Part shown: one piece after another, positions 15,155 through 18,100 of the stretch | How the letters are laid out: each line of letters opens with the position of its first letter | How positions within the stretch are numbered: position 1 is the stretch's first letter | Assembly (NCBI GenBank): GCA_000499405.2 | Contig: HG738139.1 | Coordinates: forward strand, 12,176,398-12,240,397 | DNA from: Onchocerca volvulus | Lineage: Eukaryota; Nematoda; Chromadorea; Rhabditida; Onchocercidae | Length of the DNA: 64,000 bases | Direction of reading: 5' to 3' | The notes under the pieces: model-generated | The model's input: the letters and a program-made list of their open reading frames with translations, nothing else | Told to the model about the DNA's origin: nothing | Database searches by the model: none | Program-made: the position numbers and the translations under genes

Positions 15155-18100
15155 ATGGAGGAAATTCTTTTTGCGTTGTTAATTATTTCATTTTGTTTCA
15201 TTACAATTAACGGTACACCAACTGTTGCAACCCCTACAGGTAAATTTTGAAATAAAGTAATTTGTCGTAAATATCATTTATGGCAATTTATGTGCATAAT
15301 AATTGGCGCTTATTTTAGAAATCCTCTTTAAGTAATATTTATTGTTATTCACTTTTCTTGGAATTATAAGAAATTCAACTTTTCGCCTATTAGATTCTAG
15401 ACTGTAGAAGCTTATTTTCAGGCGAAAATGAAGGAACTATTGAAGAAACAACAGAGAATACGAGCCAAAGATCCATACCTACAGTTGATGAAATTTTGGA
15501 AGATTTAGAAAATGGTTTGAAAGAAGTTTATAATCAGCAAACTATGAATCGAACTCGTTATATGCAATTATATAGGTAAATTTTATGCATATTTTAAAAT
15601 TCTGAAAAACTAAATAAATCCCTTTATAATAAATTCTTCTCCTTCAATTAAAATTTTGTCAGATTTTTGATTAAATAATGAATTCATCTTTAAAGTAACC
15701 CCGGGTTTATCAATTATGTCAAAAGTTTTATTTTTCATCTTTTTTAGTTTAATTGCACAATTCAAGCTATTGAAAGTTTTCGTAATAGCTATAGAGATAA
15801 CAATCGAACAATAATTTGAAAAGATAAAATGCACAAATCAAATTAACGAATAATTTTTTTGATATGTTTAAACTAAAGTTCTGATGTTTTTGATATTTAA
15901 ACTATTTATAGTCGTGTTTACGATTTGTACACATCTGTTCCGTGCGATACTGATTCGTTTACAGACGTACATAAACATTTCGCCAAATTTGGTTCAAACC
16001 TCTATAAACATTTGAAGCATTTCCTTCAGAATCATGTTGAAAATGTTTATCAGGTTTGTCTGAATATATTTTAACAATTTTGGTAAATAAAGGCTAATTC
16101 TTATGAAAATGTTATGTTTCTGAGCGATAAATATGTTGTTATATTAGCATAGTAACAATTTTGTTTTCAGAAAGGTAGTGATTTGAATGATGAGAATCTT
16201 TTGAACTACTTCACAACGCAATGGGATTCCTATCGATTTAATTCGAAAGTGATGCGAGGAATATTTAACTATCTAAATCGTGATTGGATAGAATTGGAAC
16301 TGGATGAAGGAAATAAGAAAATTTACGAAATTTACGTTGTAATGATTACTTTTGATTATTTCAAAATAAAGCACCGCAGTTTACCTTAAATTTGCGCCAA
16401 AAATTTCTACTTCCAGTGTTTCCATCTATTATATCTTCATCTTTTCAATAGAATTTCTTCTTCTTTAATTTCCTATTATCCACGAAAGTTATCAATCAAT
16501 GACGAATAGTGTTTATAGCTTGTGAAAATGTTTTCTGCTTGCAATTTTCTAGATTCTTGATTCATCATTGTTATCACTTATTTTCAGTTGGCGATTTTGA
16601 CGTGGAAGGAGTTCCTGTTCACTCACATGCGTGACAGTGTAATGAACGCGGTATTAAAACTGATTGAACGTGAGAGAAATGGCGAAAAAATCAATGCAGG
16701 ATTGATCAGTGGAGTGATCAAATGCTATTGTAAGTTCTTCAATTCGATTGCTTCATTTTTAAGATTCGCGTGCTATCAAAAGTATTTTACTCTAATTATT
16801 ATTAAGTTGAGAGGAATATGTTAGCTTCGTTGATTGATTGAGTTTTAAGCAATTCTTTGCTAAATTACGATTATTTTCAGTGGAAATGGGTATGTGTGCT
16901 GGTGAGGAAACAAGTTTAGCGGCAAATGATGTTGACTGTTTATCCAAGTTACGCGTTTACCGTGATTACTTTGAGAAACGCTTCATTGCCGATACAGAAA
17001 GTTATTTTGCCAATGAAGCTGCTGAATTTATTGCTGCAAATCCAGTTACTGAATACATGAAGAAGGTCTGATTTCATCTGCTTCTTCATTGGCTGTTAGA
17101 GTTTTTGCCAAAATGAAAAGATAAAAAATATTAATCTGCAATTTCAATTTTGAAAATTTGAAATCTGTCATTTCTTGATTCAAATTTGCCTAGATTTTAG
17201 GTAGAAATCCGTTTAAAAGAAGAAAAAGAGCGCTGCGATCTTTATCTTCATGAATCAACGCAAGATTTGCTAGCAAAAACGCTGGAAGAAGTACTTATCA
17301 CGAAGCAGTTGGATTTATTTCAGAATGAATTTGGAAACCTTCTTGAATCAAATAAGGTCATCTTTGAACTTTGGAATCCTTTCACTGTTTTGACGCTTTT
17401 TTATTTATTAATTACATAGAATTTTCACGAAGAAAGCATATTTATTTTAAAATTTTCATCTCCTCTTTTAGTTACTTCTTCTGCTGAAAACTACTTGAAA
17501 AGATGATTTAGAATTTCAATCTCCTTTATGATCACATCTTAAACTATTCCATAGAATTTGGAAATCTCGTTTTCGTTTCATTTCTAGGATTCTGATTTGG
17601 AGCGTATGTACACACTTTGTAGTCGAATAGAAAACGGTTTAGACGAGCTACGAGTCGCACTAGAAAAGCAAATTGCTCGTCAAGGAGAAGCTGCATTAGA
17701 TAAAATCGCCGATGTGGCAGTGAATGTTAGTATTAATAAGTATTTAAAAAAATTGATTTTTCATCTCATTAGCTTTGAAGTATCGTATCAGAAAAAAAGA
17801 GATCATATTATTTCTGTAGAATAATAAAATTCAAGCAATTCGTCTTTTTAAGGTTTTTATTGGTGATTTCACTAAAATAATCGAATAGTTATAGTGTAGT
17901 CAATTAGTAAGCTGCATTCATTGAGCAAAAAAACGTGATAACAATAAAATTTGTTCAAAATTATTTGATTTTATTTATTTGTTGTGATGATGTTTCGTTT
18001 CAGTTCTGTTGAATTTGTGGAAAATAGTAATTGTTTAATTTAGTATTATTGAATGAATAATGTACTTAATATTTTTGCCTATTGGTTTTCAGAATCCAAA

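What the first reader, a model, noticed from the sequence alone, without database searches (positions are those of the whole stretch)
15576..16119. Divergent exon-3 island inside near-identical cullin duplicates
Seen: units A and B match almost base for base over ~6.9 kb, introns included, except for ~0.5 kb around exon 3. There introns are loosely related and the proteins differ in sequence and by 15 residues in length. Both versions are open and in phase. Known: the first cullin repeat of CUL1 binds SKP1/F-box adaptors. Inference: gene conversion homogenised the rest and spared, or replaced, the adaptor-facing segment, giving two scaffolds with different adaptor choice.
Basis: partly seen in the sequence, partly recalled or inferred. 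Interest (0 to 1): 0.8.

Follow-up and report, generated by a model that had tools for sequence, protein, structure and literature searches.

The report
Twin worm cullins differing in exon 3
The river-blindness worm carries two almost identical copies of a fast-evolving ubiquitin-ligase scaffold gene that copying between them seems to have kept alike everywhere except one small segment; its cattle-worm sister species has both versions too, so the difference is probably real and old, but only a small part of it is likely to touch the surface that binds partner proteins.

Summary
Confirmed. Two CUL1-like genes (A, 15155-21102; B, 26889-32752) lie in tandem in an Onchocerca volvulus window, downstream of the 3' end of ordinary cul-1. 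They differ at 9 of 6,323 aligned bases. Between the two near-identical blocks lies a 542/458-bp island (A 15575-16116, B 27309-27766) with 120 mismatches in 411 aligned bases, holding exon 3 (48 vs 63 residues). Island introns diverge about as much as A does from cul-1, so the island looks like original paralogue divergence and the rest like later gene conversion.

Support from a second species: O. ochengi proteins carry both versions, exons 1, 2 and 4 unchanged; their two contigs differ by 84 bp, exactly the island length difference.

"Adaptor-facing" is only partly right. Exon 3 encodes the second half of helix alpha2, a loop and alpha3. The essential SKP1 residues (Tyr42, Met43) are in exon 2 and alpha5 contacts in exon 4; A and B share them. 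Of 7 mapped positions one differs: Tyr50, His in B. Selection or a recombination barrier may have preserved the island; the data do not decide. A signal-peptide-like first exon is the largest functional question.

The parts
15575..16116 (+). Divergent island in copy A: last base of exon 2, intron 2, exon 3, first 63 bp of intron 3
   Evidence: 120 mismatches in 411 aligned bases against 9 in 6,323 in the two blocks beside it
15912..16053 (+). Exon 3 of copy A (48 residues counting the split codon; net 15 residues shorter than B)
   Evidence: GT-AG introns on both sides, in phase; aligned with cul-1 orthologues
27309..27766 (+). Divergent island in copy B
27494..27680 (+). Exon 3 of copy B (63 residues; aligns without gaps to canonical O. 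volvulus cul-1 exon 3; His at the Tyr50 position)
15155..21102 (+). CUL1-like gene A, 18 exons, 806 aa
   Evidence: corresponds to deposited O. volvulus protein P0001 (A0A8R1U234)
26889..32752 (+). CUL1-like gene B, 18 exons, 821 aa
14641..15574 (+). Left homogenised block, A side (B 26375-27308)
   Evidence: 4 mismatches in 934
16117..21506 (+). Right homogenised block, A side (B 27767-33155)
   Evidence: 5 mismatches in 5,389, none in the first 3,760
14249..14640 (+). Upstream stretch that escaped homogenisation (B 25983-26374)
   Evidence: K2P 0.13; 45 mismatches in 380
15155..15239 (+). Exon 1 of A (B 26889-26973): hydrophobic, signal-peptide-like N-terminus, not seen in the cul-1 orthologues aligned
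   Evidence: 12-residue hydropathy up to 3.07 within residues 4-16; same in both O. ochengi forms; alignment with 16 other nematode and animal cul-1 proteins
1..1859 (+). 3' end of the canonical O. volvulus cul-1 gene (complete exons 14-18 at 550-1859), the presumed parent of A and B
15584..15703 (.). About 120 bp present only in A, 9 bp inside the island's left edge
27743..27766 (.). 24 bp present only in B, exactly at the island's right edge

Best explanation
A and B are two old tandem copies derived from cul-1. They share a new first exon and evolved fast after leaving cul-1. Later, gene conversion between them rewrote at least two tracts (about 0.93 kb and 5.4 kb) and made them nearly identical, but left a half-kilobase patch around exon 3 with its original paralogue divergence. 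The patch gives two scaffold proteins that differ only in the second half of helix alpha2, the alpha2-alpha3 loop and alpha3 of the first cullin repeat. Shown: the pattern, the intact reading frames, the two exon-3 forms in a sister species, and the neutral-level divergence of island introns. Inferred: that conversion, rather than assembly polishing, made the identity. Most likely, but only just: selection against copying across exon 3 kept the two forms apart, as proposed for opsin exon 5 and RH exon 7; the indels at both edges may also have stopped tracts. Functional reading (inferred): both copies should still be neddylatable CUL1-like scaffolds that keep the core SKP1 residues; exon 3 would tune affinity or partner fit at the rim of the adaptor site rather than replace the site.
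For: Near identity outside and 29% mismatch inside the island. Neutral divergence inside the island (introns K2P 0.13-0.30) matches cul-1 versus A (0.19-0.30) and un-homogenised flank (0.13), as expected if the island is the unconverted remainder. O. ochengi proteins show both forms: A-form 0 of 183 and B-form 1 of 198 residues different from O. volvulus, that one in exon 3; the source contigs are 1,631 and 1,547 bp, difference 84, equal to the island length difference of 84, as if both cover the same span. Reading frames are kept: under neutral decay at K=0.05, 0.8% of 1,000 simulated sequences had no stop, and none of 1,000 at each of 0.08, 0.1, 0.15 and 0.2. Changes since cul-1 are uneven, 84 of 269 sites in exons 2-4 and 16-18 against 53 of 522 elsewhere, so some parts are constrained. 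Precedents for divergence peaks kept by selection under gene conversion: opsin exon 5 (PMC3924837 passages) and RH exon 7 (PMC3966226 passages).
Against: The published O. volvulus assembly was built from short paired-end and mate-pair reads with gap closing and consensus correction (PMC5310847 passages), so part of the near identity could be imposed by software; that the window is from that assembly is assumed. Island edges abut indels, which a plain recombination barrier explains without selection. Exon 3 dN/dS between A and B is 0.57 with a bootstrap range of 0.18-2.0 on 32 alignable codons, 1.33 in the first 10 and 0.32 in the last 22: no proof of selection either way. An open exon 3 alone is weak evidence (22-59% of neutral simulations stay open). 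Which O. ochengi assembly the two contigs come from is not shown, and their DNA was not seen.
Confidence: 0.72

Rival explanations
1. Recombination barrier only (a variant of the conversion account, so its odds overlap with it): the indels and the diverged loop stop conversion tracts, the island survives passively and the exon-3 difference has little or no function.
For: Left edge 9 bp from an indel of about 120 bp, right edge exactly at a 24-bp indel; exon 3 is among the more variable exons of cul-1 between filariae too, 8-13% in 3 comparisons; dN/dS in exon 3 unresolved.
Against: The right block runs 5.4 kb, so tracts long enough to carry a 0.5-kb patch may exist; the two forms are older than the O. 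volvulus/O. ochengi split; the alpha3 end of exon 3 looks constrained (dN/dS 0.32 on 22 codons).
Confidence: 0.38
2. Trans-species allelic polymorphism: A and B are two old alleles of one locus, placed in tandem by the assembler.
For: The O. ochengi contigs have the shape of an assembly bubble (lengths differing only by the island), which two alleles would also give; the published O. ochengi assembly is from one diploid female, if these contigs are from it.
Against: The flanks of A and B in the window differ like paralogues upstream (K2P 0.13) and show no similarity downstream, and about 4.5 kb of other sequence separates the copies.
Confidence: 0.08
3. Assembly homogenisation: two moderately diverged copies whose true sequence outside the island was overwritten by gap filling and consensus correction.
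For: Short-read assembly with GapFiller, IMAGE and ICORN2 (PMC5310847 passages).
Against: Reads from copies as different as the island would not collapse (reasoning, not tested); O. ochengi also has the same exons 1, 2 and 4 in both forms, though only as protein.
Confidence: 0.15
4. One copy is a dying gene rescued everywhere but exon 3 by conversion from the other.
For: Each exon 3 has lost residues that are near-invariant in CUL1: A the Cys53 position and a net 15 loop residues, B Tyr50; simulated neutral exons often stay open.
Against: No stop, frameshift or broken splice site in either exon; A-form 0 and B-form 1 residue changed between species.
Confidence: 0.15

Closest known systems
CUL1 (SCF scaffold): O. 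volvulus cul-1 (P0007) and human CUL1
   Same: Cullin and Cullin_Nedd8 domains, full length, best sequence and structure matches are CUL1 chains, Y42/M43/Y46 and the neddylation motif IVRIMK kept
   Different: New hydrophobic exon 1; 137 polarised replacements in exons 2-18 against 2 on cul-1; H143D and R146E in both copies; Y50H in B
Human red/green opsin genes (exon 5 divergence peak)
   Same: Converted duplicates with a divergence peak over one exon (PMC3924837 passages)
   Different: There the flanking introns stay alike; here intron 2 and part of intron 3 are divergent too, and no function is known
Human RHCE/RHD (exon 7 cluster of fixed differences)
   Same: An exon thought to resist conversion by selection (PMC3966226 passages)
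   Different: Polymorphism data back selection there; none were available here
C. elegans CUL-6
   Same: A second SCF-type cullin in a nematode, linked with SKR-3/4/5 to infection and heat responses (start of abstract of PMC11238739; PMC4063957 passages)
   Different: Relationship to A/B was not tested; whether CUL-6 has a leader or a converted twin was not looked at

Membership tests
CUL1 / SCF scaffold | Cullin and neddylation domains above Pfam cut-offs | tested here: met
   A 578.5 and 92.9 bits, B 577.1 and 92.8 bits; cut-offs 33.2 and 36.9
CUL1 / SCF scaffold | Core SKP1-side residues Y42, M43, Y46 | tested here: met
   All three present in A and B; Y42A/M43A loses SKP1 in human CUL1 (PMC4737497 passages)
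CUL1 / SCF scaffold | Further adaptor-side positions Y50, H143, R146 (by alignment to Cul2 contacts) | tested here: not met
   H143 to D and R146 to E in both copies; Y50 kept in A, His in B. So they are filed as CUL1-derived paralogues, not as ordinary SKP1-binding CUL1
CUL1 / SCF scaffold | NEDD8 acceptor lysine in IVRIMK motif | tested here: met
   Motif present in both models; K720 of human CUL1 is the neddylation site (PMC4737497 passages), its place in this motif is recalled. Deposited model P0001 skips this exon
CUL1 / SCF scaffold | RBX1 and SKP1 binding, ligase activity in the cytosol or nucleus | not testable with these tools
   No binding or localisation data; exon 1 is signal-peptide-like
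Gene-conversion divergence peak kept by selection | Homogenised flanks with a sharp divergent patch over an exon | tested here: met
Gene-conversion divergence peak kept by selection | Orthologues more alike than paralogues inside the patch, reverse outside | tested here: inconclusive
   Inside: met at protein level (A-form 0, B-form 1 difference between species). Outside: exons 1, 2 and 4 are the same in all four, so the reverse cannot be seen without O. ochengi DNA
Gene-conversion divergence peak kept by selection | Evidence of selection on the patch | tested here: inconclusive
   dN/dS 0.57, bootstrap 0.18-2.0

The most novel reading that the evidence does not exclude
Onchocerca has a pair of CUL1-derived scaffolds with an acquired leader peptide that work outside the ordinary cytosolic SCF (secretory pathway or secreted). 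Gene conversion keeps their ligase body identical while selection keeps two alternative adaptor-rim segments (exon 3) in every genome, giving two fixed binding versions of one new ubiquitin-ligase scaffold.
Probability: 0.12. Interest if true: 0.8.

Novelty: new member of a known kind. Interest (0 to 1): 0.52.

Why it matters
The pattern points, without experiment, at the one exon whose difference may matter in a duplicated ubiquitin-ligase scaffold of a human parasite, and makes the choice between selection and recombination barrier testable with long reads and population data. A cullin that has replaced its start with a signal-peptide-like exon and gathered 137 replacements where its parent gene gathered 2 would be unusual biology if expressed.

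Tried and rejected
Considered and dropped: (1) island as foreign or replaced sequence: both forms align to cul-1 exon 3 and most of the island introns align to each other. (2) Recent simple duplication with a diverging exon: island introns are about as divergent as A from cul-1, and both forms occur in O. ochengi. (3) B exon 3 copied recently from cul-1: 24 of 62 residues differ. (4) Pseudogene pair: neutral-decay simulation. (5) Island equals adaptor site: residue mapping.

Led nowhere: literature search for Onchocerca and cullin (36 papers, 20 listed, none on this by its listing; the term also matches surnames); searches for a CUL1-SKP1 contact list (and passages of PMC4403949); the O. ochengi proteome paper PMC4974336 has no 'cullin' in its main text. 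Capped lists: one search scored 7,994 candidates and lists 120 of 1,069 hits; one search found 7 (P0001 and six cul-1 proteins); one search found 74. Only Onchocerca entries with the A/B leader were seen (P0001, P0122, P0123), but not all listed sequences were read and that is no proof of absence elsewhere. The AlphaFold model of P0001 has mean pLDDT 65.2, and 52-67 per block over residues 81-110, so helix limits there are rough. Foldseek lists CUL1 chains first, but at TM 0.4-0.5 and rmsd near 30 for whole chains; the part that superposes well is the N-terminal region. Polarised counts: 142 changes were counted; the 5 in exon 1 were dropped as non-homologous, leaving 137; the outgroup rule was at least 5 of 6 sequences agreeing (the header printed says otherwise). 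Neighbouring ORFs: 20 of 112 listed ORFs were scanned, 8 had a hit, 3 of these (two kinase, one GBR2_CC) below Pfam's cut-off.

Full report
What is there. The window is from Onchocerca volvulus or something very close to it: copy A corresponds to the deposited O. volvulus protein P0001 (A0A8R1U234) and the left edge of the window to deposited O. volvulus cul-1, P0007. Three CUL1-type genes lie on the + strand: the 3' end of cul-1 (complete exons 14-18 at 550-1859), gene A (15155-21102) and gene B (26889-32752), the latter two with 18 exons each in hand-built models. Between cul-1 and A are ORFs matching glycosyltransferase family 25 (6000-6278) and, below Pfam's cut-off, protein kinase (8246-8485, 9163-9405); Helitron-like fragments lie upstream of both A and B.

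Observation. A and B differ at 9 of 6,323 aligned bases in the blocks 14641-15574 and 16117-21506, and at 120 of 411 in the island 15575-16116 (B 27309-27766). In 10,000 permutations the longest identical run was 570 (observed 3,769) and the most mismatches in 400 columns 27 (observed 119). Exon 3 is 48 residues in A and 63 in B; in the full alignment 22 of 44 aligned residues differ. B aligns to cul-1 exon 3 without gaps; A is a net 15 residues shorter in the loop.

Age. Neutral distance between A and B is K2P 0.30 in alignable intron 2, 0.13 in the first part of intron 3, and 0.13 at 14249-14640; between cul-1 and A it is 0.19-0.22 in introns 13-16 (13 in part) and 0.30 in the 3' flank. So the island carries old paralogue divergence and the blocks beside it were probably made alike later. 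O. ochengi proteins show both forms: P0123 (A form, 0 of 183 residues different from O. volvulus A) and P0122 (B form, 1 of 198 different from O. volvulus B, in exon 3). A short-read assembler gives that when two copies are identical outside the island; this is inference from lengths alone, the contig DNA was not seen, and it is not shown which O. ochengi assembly they belong to. Mitochondrial divergence of the two species is about 3.3% (PMC5978932 passages), so about 0.1% between A and B suggests conversion after the split; a nuclear figure was not found.

Assembly. The published O. volvulus assembly came from one female worm by short paired-end and mate-pair Illumina reads, an optical map, gap closing and consensus correction (PMC5310847 passages). 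If the window is from it, the exact identity of the long blocks needs long reads; the two exon-3 forms do not rest on this assembly alone.

Are the genes alive. Simulated neutral decay at 0.05 substitutions per site left 0.8% of 1,000 sequences free of stops; at 0.08, 0.1, 0.15 and 0.2 none, while A and B have all 18 exons in phase. Pairwise dN/dS of cul-1 against A in exons 14-18 is 0.86 with dS 0.16 (174 codons), high for a gene so conserved between species. Polarised by six nematode cul-1 proteins (five named spirurids, one unnamed), 137 replacements in exons 2-18 fall on the B branch and 2 on O. volvulus cul-1. They gather at both ends: 84 of 269 sites in exons 2-4 and 16-18 against 53 of 522 elsewhere; heterogeneity across exons p = 3e-8. 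Some central exons are nearly unchanged (exon 7: 1 of 52). This looks like a functional paralogue with relaxed or altered use of its two ends. Exon 3 itself is unresolved: dN/dS 0.57, bootstrap 0.18-2.0; 1.33 in its first 10 codons and 0.32 in its last 22. An open exon 3 is expected in 22-59% of neutral simulations, so openness alone says little.

First exon. Both copies, in both Onchocerca species, begin with [24 protein letters not shown], hydropathy up to 3.07 over 12 residues, and exon 2 has no in-frame ATG before the cullin domain. The cul-1 orthologues aligned begin differently. No signal-peptide program was available; two early glutamates are not typical. If it acts as a leader, the adaptor question changes.

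Verdict. Gene conversion sparing or failing to cross an old exon-3 patch is the best account (0.72; within it, selection and barrier are nearly equal). The adaptor-choice inference is only partly supported. Peaks of this kind are known in opsins (PMC3924837 passages) and RH genes (PMC3966226 passages); what is new is the case. I found no paper on it in the one search made for it (20 of 36 papers listed).

Noticed in passing
15155-15239 and 26889-26973: Exon 1 of both copies encodes a hydrophobic signal-peptide-like start not seen in the cul-1 orthologues aligned; the same in both O. ochengi forms.
   Followed up: partly
15155-21102 and 26889-32752: The A/B lineage has 137 polarised replacements in exons 2-18 against 2 in O. 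volvulus cul-1, concentrated at the adaptor and neddylation ends.
   Followed up: partly
1230-1727, 20703-20970, 32353-32620: A GC-AG intron (GCGAGT donor) before the last exon in cul-1, A and B; the deposited models P0001 and P0007 skip or misread the exon beside it.
   Followed up: partly
13275-13508 (-), 23285-23575 (-), 23721-23936 (-): Helitron-like N-terminal and PIF1 helicase fragments upstream of A and of B; 12716-13053 and 23086-23429 are about 80% identical. Helitron-aided duplication is possible but untested.
   Followed up: no
24157-24537: A third, divergent copy (K2P about 0.29) of the sequence upstream of A and B, 1.8 kb before B's.
   Followed up: no
6000-6278 (+), 8246-8485 (+), 9163-9405 (+), 42423-42683 (-): Neighbouring ORFs with Pfam hits: glycosyltransferase family 25, protein kinase (two, below the cut-off), ephrin.
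   Followed up: no
50134-50324: Direct repeat with a 37-bp shift, 92% identical.
   Followed up: no
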